From: an uncultured Erysipelotrichaceae bacterium
GTDB taxonomy: Bacteria > Bacillota_I > Bacilli_A > RFN20 > CAG-826
NCBI GenBank assembly: GCA_902787955.1
Contig: CADAIJ010000001.1
Location: 186,001-250,000, forward strand
DNA: 64,000 nt
Reading direction: 5' to 3'
Made by a program: the position numbers and the translations under genes. Positions 57,436 through 64,000 of the stretch are shown here, piece by piece (position 1 is the first letter of the stretch; each line of letters begins with the position of its first letter). The notes beneath the pieces were generated by a model, which was not told the DNA's origin, made no database searches, and saw only the letters and a program-made list of their open reading frames with translations.

Positions 57436-59679
57436 TTAAATAGTAATGTTTGTTTTATATAATAAGACCCCGTTAAGATCTTCTATAGCTAAGGTATAAG
57501 TTCCACTATAACCGACTTGATTAATATCGGTTGTGTCAGTGGTATCTCCTGATTGATAGGCGATTAAATAAATACTGAAGTATTTATCAGTTTGATAAGA
57601 ACTATTTGGATCGATTGTTCCAGTTCCTTCTCCTCTAATCGCATTATCGTCTCTATTTAAGTGACCTCTAACATTCCCATCAGCGATAAGAATTTCAGGA
57701 ACATAGCCGCTTTCATAGGTGACTCTAATTTCACCCATGGTTAAATCGCTTGTGGTAAATACTGGACGAATATAGCCAAGTTCTGCTGTAAGAACAAATG
57801 ATTCATGAACGGTTTCGTCTCCTGTTGTAGCGTCAAATGAAACGATTTGGAAGGTATAATCTTCATCTTTAAAGAATGGAGCGTTTACATTTACGATTTG
57901 TTCTTCGATTTCAGTTGATGAGACTGAAGAACCAAAGCTATCGATAATACGAACATAATTGCCTTGATAAGACATGTAAGCTTCTTCGGTTAATGAAATC
58001 GAAATATTACTTTCATCATCAAAAGTAACCATACCGAATGGTTTTGCGGTTGTTTCGAATTCTACTTCTACTAAAGTATCACTTGTGTCAGCATTAGTTA
58101 CTTTAATGTTGAATACTGTTTCAGAAGGAAGAGATGTAAATTCGAGGTAATATACCAAGTAGGCATCTTCAATAAAAGTAATGTTATATGGTGAATCATT
58201 AAGATAGATGGCTAAGCTAAGATCCTCGGGAATCTCTTTAGTGGTTGAGAAATAAATCTTCGCGGAATCATAAGAAATAACATGTTTCTCTTCATATTCA
58301 AAGATTTCAAATTCAACATCTAAAGTCGTAAATGTTGTTTCTAATAATGCATTACCAGATTCCGATCCATTTCTAATCTCTAAAGAATATGTTGTGTTAG
58401 GAGTTAAACTAGAGAACTCTAACATATACTTATTTGGAGTGTCTTCTACTAAAGTAGAATCTTCATAAACTCTAGTGTTTAAAAGAATGACACATTCGTT
58501 ATCCTCAATTGCTCTATTAGTTTCAAAACGTAAAGTAGCTTCAATACTTCCGATATCGTGTTGATCTACTAATTCAGTAATAACTAAGTCTTCTAATGGA
58601 GTTTCAAAAGAATAGGTCAATAAGTTACGGCCAGTAGAGATTTCGTTAATTTTTAAGGTATAAGGAGCACTACTTTCTAAGTTATAAGCATCAAAATAAT
58701 AAAGGTTTGTTTCTTCTTCAAGTAAAGAGAAGTCATCAGTAGCTTTATCATTTAAAAGAACTTCAATATCGTTACTATCAATGGCTTTGTTTGAATTAAG
58801 TAAGAATGAAACTTGATTGGATGAGATTTCGATTGAGGATTCATCCATAGTAAGTGTTAATTCTTCTTCAGGAGGTTCTTCTTCAAGAGGAGGAAGTTCA
58901 AGATAGGCTAAACCTTGATCAGCGTGCTTAACGGAAATAATTAATGGTTTAGTGTAATCAATATCAGTTAATTCATATTGTTTTTCATGTTCAAATTGGT
59001 CTGAAATTAAGTAGGTTTTAGCGCCACTATAAACGTTAACAGTGACAAATTGATAGTCTGATTCATAGACGACAAAGAAGGATAAAACTTCAGGAGTGTA
59101 CTCGTTAATTTCAATGAATGTCGCTGAATCGAGGCCAGTTGTTATATATTTTTTGTTAAATTTGCTTGTTCCGTTTAAGCTAACATCAAGTGTGTATTCA
59201 ACGTTTTCTTCAAGTTCATAAAAGGAAACAAAGGTACCATCTTTAACATCATAAGTAAGTTCATAATCTTTACTTGTTAGGGTTGCTAAAACTTCATCTG
59301 TTTCAGTTAGATTATTGGTTTTAACTTCAAACACTAATGAGGTATTTGTGGATTGGAATAAAGAAACATCTATTGATGGAGATGTTGCTACCACCACACC
59401 ACCTAAAACTGTGCCACCTGATGTTGCTGCAGTTATCAATATAACTGGAAGAACATTTGGTTTGGGAGCGACCTTTGGTTTTGGATTATTGATATTATTA
59501 CTATCCGAGTGGTTAGATATTTCTTCACTTGCTGGGTTTTCTTCTTTGGAATAAGAAATCGAATCTGAATGAAAAAAGGAGGAATAATCTTCCTTTTCAT
59601 TTATCGTATCTGAGAACGAGAAAAACTCATTATCAGAAGAATAATTATTGTTTTGATAATCAAAATCTTTCTCTTTCAT
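57436..59679 (-). CDS. Single-pass membrane protein with tandem beta domains, paired with MscS
   Basis: The 747-residue protein has a 76-residue Ser/Asn/Asp/Glu-rich cytoplasmic N-terminus, one helix (about 77-99) and a large outer part. The outer part contains at least three roughly 90-residue fibronectin-like repeats (about 275-375, 375-460, 460-555), each with a YYxExxSL/YxLEI-type strand pair. A further beta region and a Cys-free C-terminus follow. No signal cleavage and no enzyme motif. A TAGAAT box lies 8 nt before the ATG and no ribosome binding site is seen. MscS follows 16 nt later. The layout is an enlarged version of 6893-7396. Confidence 0.72.
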   Translation of the reverse strand: MKEKDFDYQNNNYSSDNEFFSFSDTINEKEDYSSFFHSDSISYSKEENPASEEISNHSDSNNINNPKPKVAPKPNVLPVILITAATSGGTVLGGVVVATSPSIDVSLFQSTNTSLVFEVKTNNLTETDEVLATLTSKDYELTYDVKDGTFVSFYELEENVEYTLDVSLNGTSKFNKKYITTGLDSATFIEINEYTPEVLSFFVVYESDYQFVTVNVYSGAKTYLISDQFEHEKQYELTDIDYTKPLIISVKHADQGLAYLELPPLEEEPPEEELTLTMDESSIEISSNQVSFLLNSNKAIDSNDIEVLLNDKATDDFSLLEEETNLYYFDAYNLESSAPYTLKINEISTGRNLLTYSFETPLEDLVITELVDQHDIGSIEATLRFETNRAIEDNECVILLNTRVYEDSTLVEDTPNKYMLEFSSLTPNTTYSLEIRNGSESGNALLETTFTTLDVEFEIFEYEEKHVISYDSAKIYFSTTKEIPEDLSLAIYLNDSPYNITFIEDAYLVYYLEFTSLPSETVFNIKVTNADTSDTLVEVEFETTAKPFGMVTFDDESNISISLTEEAYMSYQGNYVRIIDSFGSSVSSTEIEEQIVNVNAPFFKDEDYTFQIVSFDATTGDETVHESFVLTAELGYIRPVFTTSDLTMGEIRVTYESGYVPEILIADGNVRGHLNRDDNAIRGEGTGTIDPNSSYQTDKYFSIYLIAYQSGDTTDTTDINQVGYSGTYTLAIEDLNGVLLYKTNITI

Positions 59680-59823: not shown

Positions 59824-60885
59824 ATGATTAAAAAAACGTATCTATTATCATTAATCCCTCTACTTACTAGTTGTTTTAATACGCCTAGCACCACTAAAAC
59901 AAATTATTTTAAACAATATGAAGATATCGTTTCTAAAAATCCAAATGGAGAATATAGCTTTATCACTTTATATGATGAAAGCGATAATCGTTTCTCTTTA
60001 ACCTTTGGTTATGGAGATCACTTTCATTATGAAATTAAGATTACTGAATATGATTTAACTTATAACTATATTTATCCAAACGAAGGTAAGTTTAGTGAAG
60101 ATTACGAAAGTATCACTTTTGAATTAGACGTGAAAAGTGAAAGTGAGTTATTCCCTGATGGTAATTACACTTTAAAACATGAATATAAAGATAACGACGA
60201 TGACTTTGTTTTAGATGTTAACGGAGAGGAAATAAAGTTAACAAAAGAGGCAAAGACTCCTGCTAAATATATAAATCCTAACTTAGTGGGAGATTTTATA
60301 TATGAAGATTATTTCTCTTTAAGCGTCACTGTTTCTAGTTTAAAAACCCATCGAGAAGTATCAGTAAGTTTAAAAGAAAATGATTTAACCTTTGTTGGAG
60401 AAAATTTTGTTATTAATGACAATAATTTACCTTTTAAGATTAAAGGCGATAAAGATGGGAGCTATATTAAGTTAGGTGACGCTTTACTTTATTATAGTTT
60501 AAATGTAGTAAATCTGAAGATAGGTGACACTACTTATAAACTCACTAGAAAGCAAAAAGAGGCGACTTCCTATTTCTTAAATAAAGATTTAGAGGCTACC
60601 TTTTCAAATGAATATATCTCTATTACAGTTAGTTCCTTACTTGGGGATAAACGCCGCTATTTGAAGCTAGATGAACTTAAAGAAGGCGGTAAGAAAGATA
60701 TGTATGTTCTTTTTAGTGTTGTTGATGAAGGAGAAAGTTTAATTAACGAACAAGGTTTAACAGGAAATTTAGTGTTTACTCCTAATTCCGTGGTTAAAAT
60801 AACTCATACACTTAAAGAAAATAAAGACAAAATAGATTTATATAAAAATAACGAATTACTTTACGAAAATTTACTTATTAGCTAA
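59824..60885 (+). CDS. Lipoprotein of unknown function
   Basis: Starting at the ATG 59824-59826 gives a protein of about 353 residues with a lipoprotein signal and lipobox LTSC (Cys15); the longer frame would bury it. The mature protein is beta-rich with three partly similar units. Sequences such as YFSLSVTVSSLKTHREVSVSL and EYISITVSSLLGDKRRYLKL are clearly related, so it contains an internal repeat of about 90 residues. No known domain. No ribosome binding site: TAAAAT (59807-59812) ends 11 nt upstream. The 3' end overlaps the convergent HipA-like gene by 15 bp. Confidence 0.72.
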   Translation: MIKKTYLLSLIPLLTSCFNTPSTTKTNYFKQYEDIVSKNPNGEYSFITLYDESDNRFSLTFGYGDHFHYEIKITEYDLTYNYIYPNEGKFSEDYESITFELDVKSESELFPDGNYTLKHEYKDNDDDFVLDVNGEEIKLTKEAKTPAKYINPNLVGDFIYEDYFSLSVTVSSLKTHREVSVSLKENDLTFVGENFVINDNNLPFKIKGDKDGSYIKLGDALLYYSLNVVNLKIGDTTYKLTRKQKEATSYFLNKDLEATFSNEYISITVSSLLGDKRRYLKLDELKEGGKKDMYVLFSVVDEGESLINEQGLTGNLVFTPNSVVKITHTLKENKDKIDLYKNNELLYENLLIS

Positions 60886-62082
60886 TTCTTTATGTTTTAA
60901 TGCGGCTTCGTCTAAAGAAGCTTTTTGATGTTCAAAAACATTAATAATCGCATCTATTAGTATTTGATCATAGAAACTACTTAAAGATAAATATTCTCTA
61001 ATTTCTTTTTCAAAGCCATCTAAAGAGTTAGGGTTATACCACGATAAATCCCATTCTGGATCTGGAGTGCCATAGATAAAATAAACCATAAGCAAGGTGG
61101 CTTTATTTGGATTAGATAATAAATTACGTCCGGTTCTACTTCCCCCAAAAGTACCCGCTAAATCGTATATTGGGGCAGGTCTTAAAGTACCTGTATTCAT
61201 ATTGCGGATAACAGAAATATTTTCGAAATGGATATCGCTAAGGAAACAGAGTGTTCTAAAGCAAGCTAATTTAACAAAGAAATCTTTAATACCAGGAATT
61301 GGGAATGCGGCTACTTTTTCAAAGAATTCTTTAGAAAACTTTTCGTTAGCGGTTTTAGAAAGATAATCAGTATAAAGTTGGTAAGGAAGAACATTTGATA
61401 ATGAAATAAGCTCTTCATCAATTCCAAGCATTACTGGGGAGGCAGAAGCATATTTACCGTTAATTTTCTCTAATCGATATTTAACGTACTCCCCTTCTTT
61501 AAATAATCTACTTGCTAAACGAGAAGCAAGAACTTCTCCAATACATTCTTCTGGGTGTTCATAATCGATTCCGATTTTATATAAAGTTGGAACGTCTTCG
61601 CATAACCAGCCTTTTACCGCCCAACCGGTAATAGTTAGATCAGGAACATTTAAACTACAGTGTTTTAACGCTTCATAATCCTGGTTTAAAACCGCTCTAG
61701 CAAAGCTATCATTCCATTTATTAGTGAAGAAATTTATATCCTCGTAACGGAGATTCTCCCCTTCTTTTTTATACCAGTAGTGATTGGATAAGGATAAGCC
61801 ATGACCTTTAAAGGATAGTTCTAAACTATCGTGTGTATTCGTGGCTTTTAAGATTTTTTCATAATCCGCTCTTGAAGCGGAAATGCTTCTACCATTGAAA
61901 AACTTCATTAAAGCATATTGTGGATCTTTTTTATTATTTAAGATTCCATAAGGAGCTTTGTCATAATGGGCTAGTTTTTCAATGATTTTAATATGCCTAT
62001 TCTTAAAATTAATCGAGAAAGTAAATACTTCATCGTTTTTATACATTAGTGTATAAATTGAGGCTTCTTTTATCGTTTTCAT
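60871..62082 (-). CDS. HipA-like kinase domain protein
   Basis: The 403-residue soluble protein has a C-terminal region like HipA-type Ser/Thr kinases: FLSDIHFENISVIRN near 305 with the catalytic-loop Asp and Asn, and PIYDLAGTFGGSR near 330 as the metal-binding segment. The middle part has TITGWAVKGWLCEDVPTLYKIG in place of the nucleotide-binding loop. The N-terminus (SISASRADYEKIL) fits orphan HipA-like proteins of Firmicutes. No HipB-like antitoxin gene is adjacent, so a toxin role is not assumed. It is controlled by a promoter with the same repeats as the Nif11-like gene. Confidence 0.6.
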   Translation of the reverse strand: MKTIKEASIYTLMYKNDEVFTFSINFKNRHIKIIEKLAHYDKAPYGILNNKKDPQYALMKFFNGRSISASRADYEKILKATNTHDSLELSFKGHGLSLSNHYWYKKEGENLRYEDINFFTNKWNDSFARAVLNQDYEALKHCSLNVPDLTITGWAVKGWLCEDVPTLYKIGIDYEHPEECIGEVLASRLASRLFKEGEYVKYRLEKINGKYASASPVMLGIDEELISLSNVLPYQLYTDYLSKTANEKFSKEFFEKVAAFPIPGIKDFFVKLACFRTLCFLSDIHFENISVIRNMNTGTLRPAPIYDLAGTFGGSRTGRNLLSNPNKATLLMVYFIYGTPDPEWDLSWYNPNSLDGFEKEIREYLSLSSFYDQILIDAIINVFEHQKASLDEAALKHKELANK

Positions 62083-62111: not shown

Positions 62112-62151
62112 GAAAATATCTTAACACAATACTAGTCACAGAAGTGCCACA
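62112..62151 (-). promoter_or_regulatory. Tandem-repeat promoter, copy 1 (HipA-like gene)
   Basis: On the minus strand TGTGGCACTTC is followed 11 bp later by TGTGAC. A TGTTAAGAT extended -10 box (hexamer at 62118-62123) lies at the same distance as in copy 2. The two 40-bp segments align without a gap, with about 26 identical bases. Confidence 0.55.
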
Positions 62152-62166
62152 GAAATATAAAAATAC

Positions 62167-63186
62167 TTATCTTCCACCGATGAATTTATAAACTGGATTA
62201 GCAAATCTTTTTAATAAGTGAGTAACTAATAGAGTAACACTCGTGGAAATTATATAGATGAGAAAGAATAGTAAAGCGCAGTTATAGTTAGAATTAGCGC
62301 TTATTCCAAGCTGGAGTAATTCTTTAAAACCGTTAACGATAAATAGATGAGAAAAGAAGATAAAGCCTGATGTTTTAAAGATTTCATAGATCTTTTCTTT
62401 ATTAAATAAAGAAGTTAAGATATCTAAAGAAAACCACACTAATAGAGGGGCGAAGAAACGATAAACATAATAAATATAATCTTCATAGTCAGAATGAAGT
62501 AAGGTAAAAGTTAGAGCTAAAGAAAGGAAGATTATAATTGCAATAATAGAAAAAAGTCGAGGTTTATATTTATTCATAACTGGGATCTTAAAGTAAGCTA
62601 GATAAGATCCGATAAAGAATAATGGGATCCAAATTAAGATTCCTCCATAATCTGGTCTAAAAAACATATAAACAAAGAATAAAGTAATTGGAATAAAAAT
62701 AGACCACTGCTTCAAGTATTTAAAAATAAAATATAGAAGCGGAGAACAAATAAAGAAGACAAGTAAAGGTCTAATAAACCAAAGATGTGGGTATTCTCTT
62801 GCAAGTAAGATATCTAAAACAACTGATTCAAAAGTAACTTCAATTGTTCCACCTTTCATTAAAGGAAAGATAAATGTCATAAATATAAAAGCGGCTATTG
62901 ACCAAATAAAATAAGGAATAACTAAAGAAAATACCTTTGAAAGAAGCATCCTAGGATATTCTTTTAATTCGAATTTAGTGAATAATAAGTAACCTGAAAT
63001 AACAAAGAAAGTAGGTACTGCAGCGTCTCCGATTACTAGAAGTAATCTTTGGCTAATATAGGAAAAATCATATCCTTCTAACTCTGGATTTAGTAATTCC
63101 AGATATGAAGAATGAAGGGCGATAACAAAAAGAGCAAGTATAAAGGTAACGTAATATATCTTTTTAGATAGGTCTTTACTCATCAT
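62167..63186 (-). CDS. Acyltransferase family 3 membrane protein
   Basis: The 339-residue protein has about ten transmembrane helices with the Acyl_transf_3 pattern: FVIALHSSY near residue 18 with the conserved His, PTFFVISGYLLFTKF near 57 and HLWFIRPLLVFF near 134. Such enzymes O-acetylate or O-acylate cell-surface glycans. The start is the first of two ATGs (63184-63186); neither has a ribosome binding site, but TATTAT lies 8 nt upstream. It is transcribed alone between the Nif11-like and HipA-like genes. Confidence 0.85.
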   Translation of the reverse strand: MMSKDLSKKIYYVTFILALFVIALHSSYLELLNPELEGYDFSYISQRLLLVIGDAAVPTFFVISGYLLFTKFELKEYPRMLLSKVFSLVIPYFIWSIAAFIFMTFIFPLMKGGTIEVTFESVVLDILLAREYPHLWFIRPLLVFFICSPLLYFIFKYLKQWSIFIPITLFFVYMFFRPDYGGILIWIPLFFIGSYLAYFKIPVMNKYKPRLFSIIAIIIFLSLALTFTLLHSDYEDYIYYVYRFFAPLLVWFSLDILTSLFNKEKIYEIFKTSGFIFFSHLFIVNGFKELLQLGISANSNYNCALLFFLIYIISTSVTLLVTHLLKRFANPVYKFIGGR

Positions 63187-63263: not shown

Positions 63264-63288
63264 GATAAAAAACCCAAGATTTCTTGGG
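63264..63288 (-). terminator. Terminator of the Nif11-like gene
   Basis: CCCAAG and CTTGGG (63273-63278 with 63283-63288) form a stem with a 4-nt loop. On the minus strand it is followed by TTTTTTAT; the plus-strand flank CTTTTA makes it partly bidirectional. Confidence 0.8.
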
Positions 63289-63311
63289 CTTTTATAAGTT
63301 AAAAAATGAAA

Positions 63312-63599
63312 CTAAACTCTTTGAGAAAATTTGTGACCGCAGTTTGGACAAGTGAATTTGCCCAATACAGTTTCACGTGATCCTTTATAAATTTCGTCAT
63401 TGAATTTTGTATTGCACTTAGGGCAGGTTACAGAAACGCCTGTGCTACTACAGAAGCCACCACTAACAGCGGCTAATTGTTCATCAGTAAGAGAGACGCC
63501 TTCTTCTTTTGCTAAGATAATAAGTTCATCGGTTGATTTACATTTACGAGCTTTTTCAATTTGTTCTTGGCTTAATCCTTTAAGTAATTCTTCGTTCAT
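63312..63599 (-). CDS. Nif11-type double-glycine leader peptide fused to a zinc ribbon
   Basis: The 95-residue protein has a helical leader, LSQEQIEKARKCKSTDELI then AKEEGVSLTDEQLAAVSGG. It ends in a Gly-Gly near residue 48, the cleavage-site form of Nif11-type RiPP precursors. The C-terminal 47 residues start FCSSTGVSV and contain two CPxC pairs (CPKCNTKF, CPNCGHKF), which would form a zinc ribbon. A strong AAAGGAG precedes the ATG. No maturation enzyme, peptidase or ABC exporter is visible in the window. It may be a RiPP precursor or a protein reusing such a leader for another purpose. Confidence 0.72.
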   Translation of the reverse strand: MNEELLKGLSQEQIEKARKCKSTDELIILAKEEGVSLTDEQLAAVSGGFCSSTGVSVTCPKCNTKFNDEIYKGSRETVLGKFTCPNCGHKFSQRV

Positions 63600-63617
63600 A
63601 GTTTTTCTCCTTTTGAT

Positions 63618-63657
63618 GAATTTACTTTAACATATAGAGTGCCACAAAAGTGCCACA
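63618..63657 (-). promoter_or_regulatory. Tandem-repeat promoter, copy 2 (Nif11-like gene)
   Basis: TGTGGCAC occurs twice with an 11-bp period, followed by an extended -10 box TGTTAAAGT (hexamer at 63624-63629). No -35 box is evident, so activation by a protein bound to the direct repeats is likely. Predicted transcription starts about 18 nt before the ATG. Confidence 0.6.
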
Positions 63658-63666
63658 CGTTTTTAT

Positions 63667-64000
63667 TTATTTAAATGTTGATAGATATTTATTAACTTCT
63701 TCAATCATTTTTTCTTTTGATACATTGTGTCCAGCTTGAAGGATTGTAAGATATGTTGGTCCACTAAAGGTTTTATTCTTTTCTATAGAAAAGCGTAAAC
63801 TTTCCTCTTTTTGTTTCATAATTTTTCGAATTTTATTTTCGTACTCATTATAAACTACTAGATATCTTTTGATTTCTTCTTTATCAATTAATGACTCATT
63901 AAGTAAAGAAGCACTATAAACATCCACTAAATGCTTAAATGGTCTTTCAATTTCTATAATAAGAGCGTGGATCTTTGTCGCAAGAAGATATTCAAAAGGA
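63667..64000 (-). CDS. C-terminal part of an AbiEii-like nucleotidyltransferase (tentative), cut by window edge
   Basis: The frame is open from the stop at 63667 to the window edge (about 110 residues). It reads PFEYLLATKIHALI, then RPFKHLVDVYSASLL, then a charged helical tail. The Ala-x-Lys...Arg-x-x-x-x-Asp-x-Tyr pattern resembles the C-terminal part of AbiEii/AbiGii-type nucleotidyltransferases. The GTG at 63925-63927 could be an internal start but is more likely just a Val codon. The catalytic half lies outside the window, so the family call is weak. Confidence 0.4.
   Translation of the reverse strand, partial: PFEYLLATKIHALIIEIERPFKHLVDVYSASLLNESLIDKEEIKRYLVVYNEYENKIRKIMKQKEESLRFSIEKNKTFSGPTYLTILQAGHNVSKEKMIEEVNKYLSTFK

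What the first reader, a model, noticed from the sequence alone, without database searches (positions are those of the whole stretch)
63312..63599. Nif11-type leader peptide fused to a four-Cys zinc ribbon
The leader ends in the AVSGG cleavage-type motif of RiPP precursors, but the predicted product contains two CPxC knuckles that would fold as a zinc ribbon, an unusual core. No LanM, YcaO or radical-SAM maturase lies within the window. This is either the precursor of an unusual metal-binding peptide, or a zinc protein that has taken over a leader for export or recognition. The neighbouring acyltransferase and HipA-like gene may be unrelated.
Basis: partly seen in the sequence, partly recalled or inferred. 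Interest (0 to 1): 0.72.

Follow-up and report, generated by a model that had tools for sequence, protein, structure and literature searches.

The report
Exported zinc-ribbon peptides with shared leader
A small gut or rumen bacterium encodes about twenty different zinc-finger-like mini-proteins that all carry the same removable "ship me out" tag, share one DNA switch, and probably leave the cell through one dedicated peptide exporter; such a folded metal-binding cargo has apparently not been described for this type of peptide system.

Summary
The ORF at 63312-63599(-) is real: a 95-aa Nif11-type leader ending AVSGG, followed by a four-Cys zinc-ribbon core. It is one of 19 intact paralogues in its genome: 18 have ribbon cores; one, ribbonless, sits beside a maturase. 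Related genomes carry 1-34 copies. No maturase lies in the window, but contig 2 carries ribbonless leader - radical-SAM/SPASM - HlyD-like - C39-peptidase NHLM exporter - second ABC. Among 59 genomes, radical SAM and exporter occur in the same five, all with peptides. A direct-repeat promoter box (TGTGRCA-N4-TGTGRCA plus an extended -10) precedes most precursors, the radical-SAM operon, the exporter operon and the window's HipA-like kinase gene, so that "unrelated" neighbour belongs to the regulon. All 250 cores examined keep a Cys at residues 1-5 after GG, even those without a ribbon; 231 also have the ribbon. Core families recur across genera, several better conserved than their leaders. Best reading: a multi-precursor NHLM/N11P export system whose cargo is small zinc-ribbon proteins, probably modified at the leader-proximal Cys (inferred). 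Zinc binding, modification and biological role are untested. New variant of a known kind.

The parts
63312..63599 (-). Nif11-leader / zinc-ribbon precursor peptide (95 aa; leader residues 1-48, core 49-95)
63456..63599 (-). leader (48 aa) ending AVSGG; predicted C39 cleavage after G48
   Evidence: leader statistics in 250 members; exporter in the genome
63312..63455 (-). core: leader-proximal Cys (C50) plus zinc ribbon (C59-x2-C62 ... C84-x2-C87), two predicted beta hairpins
63640..63657 (-). regulon box TGTGGCACTTTTGTGGCA (7-bp direct repeat, 11-bp period) at the -35 position
63624..63632 (-). extended -10 element (TGTTAAAGT) in register with the box
63607..63614 (-). ribosome-binding site AAAAGGAG
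63268..63293 (-). intrinsic terminator hairpin after the peptide gene (z = -4.5), suggesting a one-gene transcript
60871..62082 (-). HipA-like kinase (403 aa), single copy in the genome, homologous to the HipA-like gene of the maturation operon in other genomes
62134..62151 (-). regulon box TGTGGCACTTCTGTGACT (1 mismatch) in front of the HipA-like gene
62118..62126 (-). extended -10 (TGTTAAGAT) of the HipA-like gene, in register with the box
63667..63999 (-). C-terminal part of an AbiEii-like nucleotidyltransferase (continues beyond the window to C1:250437); conserved upstream neighbour of such peptides in other genomes
62167..63186 (-). acyltransferase-3 family membrane protein; no regulon box of its own, homologues near peptides in only one other genome: probably unrelated

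Best explanation
The ORF is one precursor of a genome-wide, co-regulated NHLM/Nif11-leader peptide system whose cargo is small zinc-ribbon proteins. A regulator, probably the response regulator encoded just upstream of the maturation operon, acts at a TGTGRCA direct-repeat box and turns on most of ~18 scattered precursors together with a ribbonless companion precursor, a radical-SAM/SPASM enzyme, an exporter and a HipA-like kinase. The shared leader brings each precursor to the maturation machinery; the invariant Cys next to the cleavage site, in a Ser/Thr-rich stretch, is the most likely modification site. The C39 ABC transporter then cuts after GG and exports a 35-55 residue product that folds as a four-Cys zinc ribbon outside the cell. 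Shown by sequence: paralogy, leader motif, shared box, co-occurrence with exporter and radical SAM, invariant Cys, constraint on cores. Inferred: which regulator binds, C39 cleavage of these particular leaders, zinc binding, the Cys modification. My best guess for the role is extracellular effector, adaptor or metal-binding peptides acting on conserved partners rather than arms-race bacteriocins (about 0.3 for any specific role).
For: 19 intact paralogues in the genome. Exporter TIGR03796 at 855 bits plus TIGR03797-like ABC, HlyD-like protein and radical SAM/SPASM on contig 2, with a family leader directly in front. Among 59 genomes (own included) the full-length C39 exporter and the radical SAM occur in the same 5, all with peptides (5 of 8 peptide genomes, 0 of 51 others, Fisher p = 1e-5; the 3 lacking them are 45-73% complete). 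In 33 peptide genomes 30 have the exporter and 28 the radical SAM. In some contigs ribbon peptides and exporter are contiguous (L071, L072, L074, L126). Box within 2 mismatches in 104 of 157 Bacilli precursor upstreams at a fixed 57-61 nt, 0 with the reversed pattern; 24 sites at <=1 mismatch in the own genome, control 0, including sites before the radical-SAM operon, the exporter operon and the HipA-like gene. Cys at residues 1-5 after GG in 250 of 250 cores; S/T 26% between it and the ribbon against 11% after. Predicted two beta-hairpins in the core and profile matches to RPB9/TFIIS-type zinc ribbons. Core pN/pS 0.115 against leader 0.232; core families up to 90-92% identical across genomes with leaders at 76-77%.
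Against: No biochemical data: zinc binding, cleavage and secretion are predictions. The radical SAM lies next to a ribbonless precursor, so ribbon precursors might not be its substrates; G067, G081 and G083 have exporter and peptides without a detected radical SAM (completeness unknown). No RRE/PqqD domain was detected by Pfam in the radical SAM N-terminus, and the regulator's DNA-binding part matches no Pfam family. The AlphaFold model is only moderate (mean pLDDT 64, core blocks 63-85). pN/pS partners were chosen by core similarity, which favours cores. The window protein alone misses the Nif11 cut-offs. Lachnospiraceae members lack this box.
Confidence: 0.72

Rival explanations
1. Cytosolic zinc-ribbon proteins that borrowed a leader as a docking tag for the maturase or another partner, not exported; only the ribbonless peptide beside the radical SAM is the exported RiPP.
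For: Only the ribbonless precursor is regularly next to the radical SAM; zinc ribbons are usually intracellular nucleic-acid or protein adaptors (PDB matches RPB9/TFIIS); cores are strongly constrained.
Against: Ribbon precursors keep the full double-glycine signature (-1, -2, -4, -7, -12) and clusters of ribbon precursors lie contiguous with the exporter, e.g. L072 and L126, where no radical SAM is adjacent. The exporter tracks the peptides across genomes.
Confidence: 0.15
2. Classical bacteriocins/microcins: the ribbon is a stable scaffold and the family is an antibacterial arsenal.
For: NHLM systems are annotated as bacteriocin exporters; many paralogues per genome; rumen/gut habitat of relatives.
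Against: No immunity gene beside each precursor: the window gene has its own promoter and terminator. Core families recur across genera with low pN/pS (0.115) instead of diversifying.
Confidence: 0.2
3. Toxin-antitoxin arrangement: the AbiEii-like nucleotidyltransferase directly upstream is a toxin and the peptide its zinc-ribbon antitoxin; leader resemblance is secondary.
For: The pair is adjacent, same strand, 34-113 bp apart in 13 other fetched loci (12 genomes) besides the window; AbiEii match above cut-off (26.6 against 22.5 bits).
Against: Most family members have no such neighbour; in the window the peptide has its own regulon promoter between the two genes and a full export leader. No box found in front of the nucleotidyltransferase.
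Confidence: 0.07
4. The cysteines are not for zinc at all but are all substrates of the radical SAM (ranthipeptide/sactipeptide-like multi-thioether peptide).
For: Radical SAM/SPASM enzyme in 28 of 33 peptide genomes; invariant leader-proximal Cys.
Against: CPxCG...CxxCG...W layout, predicted hairpins and Pfam zinc-ribbon matches in many members are the zinc-ribbon signature; the ribbonless peptides beside the enzyme keep only the leader-proximal Cys.
Confidence: 0.1

Closest known systems
NHLM/N11P systems (Haft, Basu and Mitchell 2010, PMC2887384): Nif11-derived or NHLP leader precursors with TIGR03794/03796/03797 exporter
   Same: GG-cleavage leader of the Nif11 kind, large paralogous precursor sets, correlated occurrence with the same peptidase-ABC/HlyD/second-ABC exporter trio
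   Different: The core is a folded zinc ribbon with one extra Cys instead of a TOMM or lanthionine substrate; no cyclodehydratase or LanM found beside the exporter; radical SAM and HipA-like kinase instead; shared direct-repeat promoter
Prochlorosins (Nif11-family leaders, one promiscuous ProcM, many precursors; PMC10783134)
   Same: One maturation set serving many leader-sharing precursors
   Different: Prochlorosin cores are modified by a ProcM lanthionine synthetase; here cores are constrained zinc-ribbon families and no such enzyme was seen beside the exporter
Zinc-ribbon small proteins (YnfU family NF038384, ECs_2282 family NF047912, TFIIS/RPB9 ribbons)
   Same: CPxC ... CPxC ribbon with about 20-25 residues between knuckles
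   Different: Those families carry no GG leader (my knowledge); matches are below curated cut-offs for the window protein
HipA kinases (HipBA, CtkA)
   Same: Predicted fold of the window protein matches HipA (Foldseek E 2.7e-8) and DxHxxN and YD kinase motifs are conserved
   Different: No HipB gene recognised beside it; encoded with radical SAM and peptide exporter in relatives and preceded by the peptide regulon box; Pfam HipA_C below cut-off

Membership tests
Nif11-leader RiPP precursors (PF07862 / TIGR03798) | Leader matches the Nif11 profile | tested here: met
   58 of 70 members match TIGR03798 and 49 of 70 PF07862 at E <= 0.01; three own-genome paralogues exceed the PF07862 cut-off. The window protein alone does not reach E 0.01.
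Nif11-leader RiPP precursors (PF07862 / TIGR03798) | Double-glycine cleavage motif | tested here: met
   -2 G 250/250, -1 G 249/250, -4 V/I 250/250, -7 L 240/250, -12 L 250/250
Nif11-leader RiPP precursors (PF07862 / TIGR03798) | Core is post-translationally modified | not testable with these tools
   A radical SAM/SPASM enzyme co-occurs; no chemistry can be shown from sequence
NHLM export system | TIGR03796 peptidase-ABC, TIGR03797 ABC, TIGR03794 HlyD-like protein in the genome | tested here: met
   TIGR03796 855.3 bits (cut-off 853.3); TIGR03797 654 bits (best family, but below its 709 cut-off); HlyD-like piece weak and short, 128 aa, far below cut-off
NHLM export system | Exporter co-occurs with the precursors | tested here: met
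   5 of 8 peptide genomes, 0 of 51 others; 30 of 33 peptide genomes
Zinc ribbon | Two Cys-x2-Cys knuckles on two beta hairpins | tested here: met
   231 of 250 cores have the pattern; model strands 54-58, 65-69, 79-83, 90-94 at moderate confidence
Zinc ribbon | Binds zinc | not testable with these tools
   needs purified mature peptide
TOMM (thiazole/oxazole) precursors | YcaO/cyclodehydratase encoded with the precursors or exporter | tested here: inconclusive
   none among the genes examined in the exporter region C2:110-130 kb; whole genome not scanned for YcaO
Lanthipeptide (LanM class) precursors | LanM or LanKC encoded in the locus | tested here: inconclusive
   none among the genes examined in the exporter region; whole genome not scanned
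HipA kinase (HipBA toxin-antitoxin) | HipA kinase fold and motifs | tested here: met
   Foldseek best matches are HipA chains, E 2.7e-8; DxHxxN and PxYD motifs conserved; Pfam HipA_C below its cut-off
HipA kinase (HipBA toxin-antitoxin) | Adjacent HipB antitoxin | tested here: inconclusive
   No HipB-like gene recognised around 60871-62082; small ORFs not individually tested

The most novel reading that the evidence does not exclude
A class of exported metallo-peptides: leader-guided radical-SAM (possibly with HipA-like kinase) chemistry at one invariant leader-proximal Cys/Ser-Thr stretch, fused to interchangeable, strongly conserved zinc-ribbon effector domains, giving one bacterium about twenty co-expressed extracellular zinc-ribbon effectors.
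Probability: 0.35. Interest if true: 0.85.

Novelty: new variant of a known kind. Interest (0 to 1): 0.7.

Why it matters
Products of these leader-peptide systems are usually thought of as short, chemically modified peptides. Here the same leader and exporter appear to carry small folded metal-binding domains, kept intact across genera, in numbers of up to 34 per genome, under one promoter code. If right, gut and rumen bacteria secrete a family of zinc-ribbon effectors that annotation overlooks because zinc-ribbon hits suggest ordinary intracellular proteins. It also gives a HipA-like kinase a concrete genomic context inside a peptide pathway, and makes testable predictions (cleavage, zinc content, Cys modification, box-dependent expression).

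Tried and rejected
Literature: no held paper mentions both Nif11 and zinc ribbon or Nif11 and Erysipelotrichaceae; other searches gave nothing on point. Mobile-element origin: no match in plasmids or phages. Leaderless homologues of the core: 16 of 263 ORF hits lacked a leader by my pattern; they were locus-end fragments, leaders with small deviations, NrdR-type or other proteins, and two ribbons with a different shorter GG leader (L178, L193). PF07862/TIGR03798 on the window protein alone: not listed at E <= 1. HMM search of the HipA-like family against PDB sequences found nothing; only the fold comparison did. RRE/PqqD in the radical SAM N-terminus: not found by Pfam. Identity of the regulator's DNA-binding domain: not found by Pfam; PDB sequence matches are mostly to receiver domains. 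VIA-align rows for the core model are all Z < 5, led by Cren7, with zinc ribbons (NrdR, LysW, ZitP, RPA12) below; taken only as compatible with a small beta fold. The alignment A5 of cores contains one wrongly cut row (L055, leader part) and was not used.

Full report
OBSERVATION. The ORF at 63312-63599(-) codes for 95 aa with a good ribosome-binding site. Residues 1-48 form a leader ending AVSGG; residues 49-95 hold CPKC and CPNC knuckles and one further Cys (C50) just after the GG. Pfam and NCBIfam on this protein alone give only sub-threshold zinc-ribbon matches, so the Nif11 assignment must rest on relatives.

A LARGE FAMILY IN ONE GENOME. The window is C1:186001-250000 of a 1.5 Mb draft genome (94% complete, 14 contigs). 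A protein search finds 19 members: a cluster on C5:1.3-9.5 kb and singles on C1, C2, C8, C9 and C13. In this genome 18 members have the ribbon and one, at C2:121584-121778, has the same leader but the short core ACTTEDEDHKKRKIDS. A species-level scan found 334 relatives, in MAGs labelled Bacilli, 'Erysipelotrichaceae', 'Bacillales', Lachnospiraceae and Pseudobutyrivibrio, many from ruminants. Across 70 diverse ribbon members, TIGR03798 (Nif11-like leader RiPP precursor) matches 58 and PF07862 matches 49 at E <= 0.01.

MATURATION AND EXPORT GENES LIE ELSEWHERE. On C2 the ribbonless leader is followed by a radical SAM/SPASM protein (464 aa), a short HlyD-like protein, a C39-peptidase ABC transporter (TIGR03796, 855.3 bits, cut-off 853.3) and a second ABC (TIGR03797 best, 654 bits, below its cut-off). 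Upstream lie a response regulator (receiver domain plus an unassigned C-terminus), a STAS protein and a MATE protein with a C-terminal kinase-like ATPase domain. Among 59 genomes (own included), peptides occur in 8, the full-length C39 exporter in 5 and the radical SAM in the same 5. The association is 5 of 8 against 0 of 51 (Fisher p 1.1e-5); the three peptide genomes without exporter are 58, 73 and 45% complete. (Two order-level genomes with marginal matches at E 8e-4 inside 446-aa frames were not counted as peptide genomes.) Starting from 33 peptide-bearing genomes, 30 carry the exporter, 28 the radical SAM, and each has 1-34 peptide matches. Several contigs carry ribbon peptides and exporter side by side; L072 has more than a dozen ribbon peptides and the exporter within about 17 kb.

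THE HIPA-LIKE NEIGHBOUR BELONGS. The window gene 60871-62082 is 50-56% identical to a gene found just before the ribbonless leader and/or the radical SAM in many relatives. It is single-copy in the own genome; among the 59 genomes strong homologues (>440 bits) occur only in G000, G010, G014 and G027, all system carriers. Its predicted fold matches HipA (Foldseek E 2.7e-8), with conserved DxHxxN and YD motifs.

A SHARED PROMOTER. A box TGTGRCAYWTYTGTGRCA occurs 23 times exactly and once with one mismatch in the own genome; the reversed control gives none. Sites precede most precursors, the ribbonless leader/radical SAM (a triple repeat at C2:121499-121527), the exporter operon (C2:123196) and, with one mismatch, the window HipA-like gene at 62134-62151. 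A few precede putative secreted proteins: a Big_2-domain protein, an InlB-repeat-like protein (weak match) and a class-3 lipase. Among 157 precursor upstream regions from Bacilli loci, 104 have the box within two mismatches, 57-61 nt before the start codon; the reversed pattern gives none that close. The aligned set shows an extended -10 (TGaTAAcAT) at a fixed distance, and the HipA-like gene shows the same layout. Heptamers repeated every 11 bp at the -35 position suit a PhoB/SARP-like activator (my knowledge); the adjacent response regulator is the obvious candidate, unproven. Lachnospiraceae-labelled loci do not have this box.

ANATOMY OF THE CORE. In 250 distinct precursors, all have a Cys at residues 1-5 after GG; 231 also have CxxC...CxxC with 17-34 residues from knuckle to knuckle. 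The short ribbonless cores keep only this Cys (16 of 16). The stretch between it and the ribbon is Ser/Thr-rich (26% against 11% in the rest). AlphaFold with 70 sequences gives three leader helices and four strands as two hairpins in the core, at moderate confidence; profile search against PDB sequences hits RPB9/TFIIS ribbons. Cores group into 85 families at 70% identity; several recur across many genomes with core identity 84-92% and leader identity 76-84%. Pooled pN/pS is 0.115 for cores and 0.232 for leaders; partners were picked by core similarity, so this leans towards cores.

THE UPSTREAM NUCLEOTIDYLTRANSFERASE. The gene cut by the window edge is AbiEii-like (26.6 bits, cut-off 22.5). 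In 13 other loci from 12 genomes a homologue sits 34-113 bp upstream of a ribbon precursor on the same strand, mainly with orthologues of the window peptide. The window peptide nevertheless has its own promoter in that gap and its own terminator. What the pairing means is unexplained.

MECHANISM. Most likely: the regulator switches on the set; the leader docks precursors to the radical SAM (and perhaps the kinase); the leader-proximal Cys/Ser-Thr stretch is modified; the C39 ABC cuts after GG and exports; the product folds as a zinc ribbon. Co-regulation and co-occurrence are shown from sequence; docking, modification, cleavage, export and zinc binding are inferred. Strong constraint, recurrence across genera and absence of a recognisable dedicated immunity gene in the window precursor's transcript argue against a simple bacteriocin arsenal, but do not exclude it.

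NOVELTY. The parts list (Nif11 leader, NHLM exporter, many paralogues) is that of Haft et al. 2010 (PMC2887384). A folded zinc ribbon as cargo, the invariant extra Cys, the HipA-like kinase and the common promoter were not found in the held literature. Verdict: new variant of a known kind.

Noticed in passing
window 63667-63999 and C1:249667-250437 (L026): AbiEii-like nucleotidyltransferase conserved directly upstream of ribbon precursors in many genomes; meaning unknown.
   Followed up: partly
C2:111307-118530 (L028, L029): NRPS with a phosphopantetheinyl transferase just upstream of the peptide maturation/export cluster; an NRPS-like piece also lies near the exporter in L126.
   Followed up: no
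C2:118527-120585 and C2:128175-129999 (L029): MATE transporter with a HATPase domain plus STAS proteins, and in L071 a SpoIIE/HATPase protein, flank the exporter: a partner-switching module beside a peptide exporter.
   Followed up: partly
C2:3285-4631, C2:4694-6175, C2:100554-102548: Putative secreted proteins (Big_2 domain, InlB-like repeat, class-3 lipase) preceded by the peptide regulon box.
   Followed up: partly
C2:100489-100548 and C5:5459-5644: Leader remnants (MKKELLIGLIKKNLEKGVR behind an intact box; a broken leader copy), signs of precursor gene turnover.
   Followed up: no
L178:2984-3229, L193:2993-3370: Ribbon peptides with a different, shorter GG leader and no leader-proximal Cys, next to the radical SAM.
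   Followed up: no
C13:13182-19053 (L032): Hybrid histidine kinase, REC-GGDEF-EAL protein, Hpt-like and a binding-protein-like gene next to a ribbon precursor; histidine-kinase relatives lie near precursors in 9 genomes.
   Followed up: partly
C5:306-1094, C2:104219-105034, L073:5205-5996, L119:4466-5257: TMEM164/YwaF-like membrane proteins recur near ribbon precursors.
   Followed up: no
Lachnospiraceae loci, e.g. L070, L075: Precursors there share a different upstream motif (around CAAATCTAATTAAAATGTGGTATATTA).
   Followed up: no
window 57436-59679: 747-aa putative surface protein with an acidic, Ser-rich N-terminus and repeated beta-domain-like segments.
   Followed up: no
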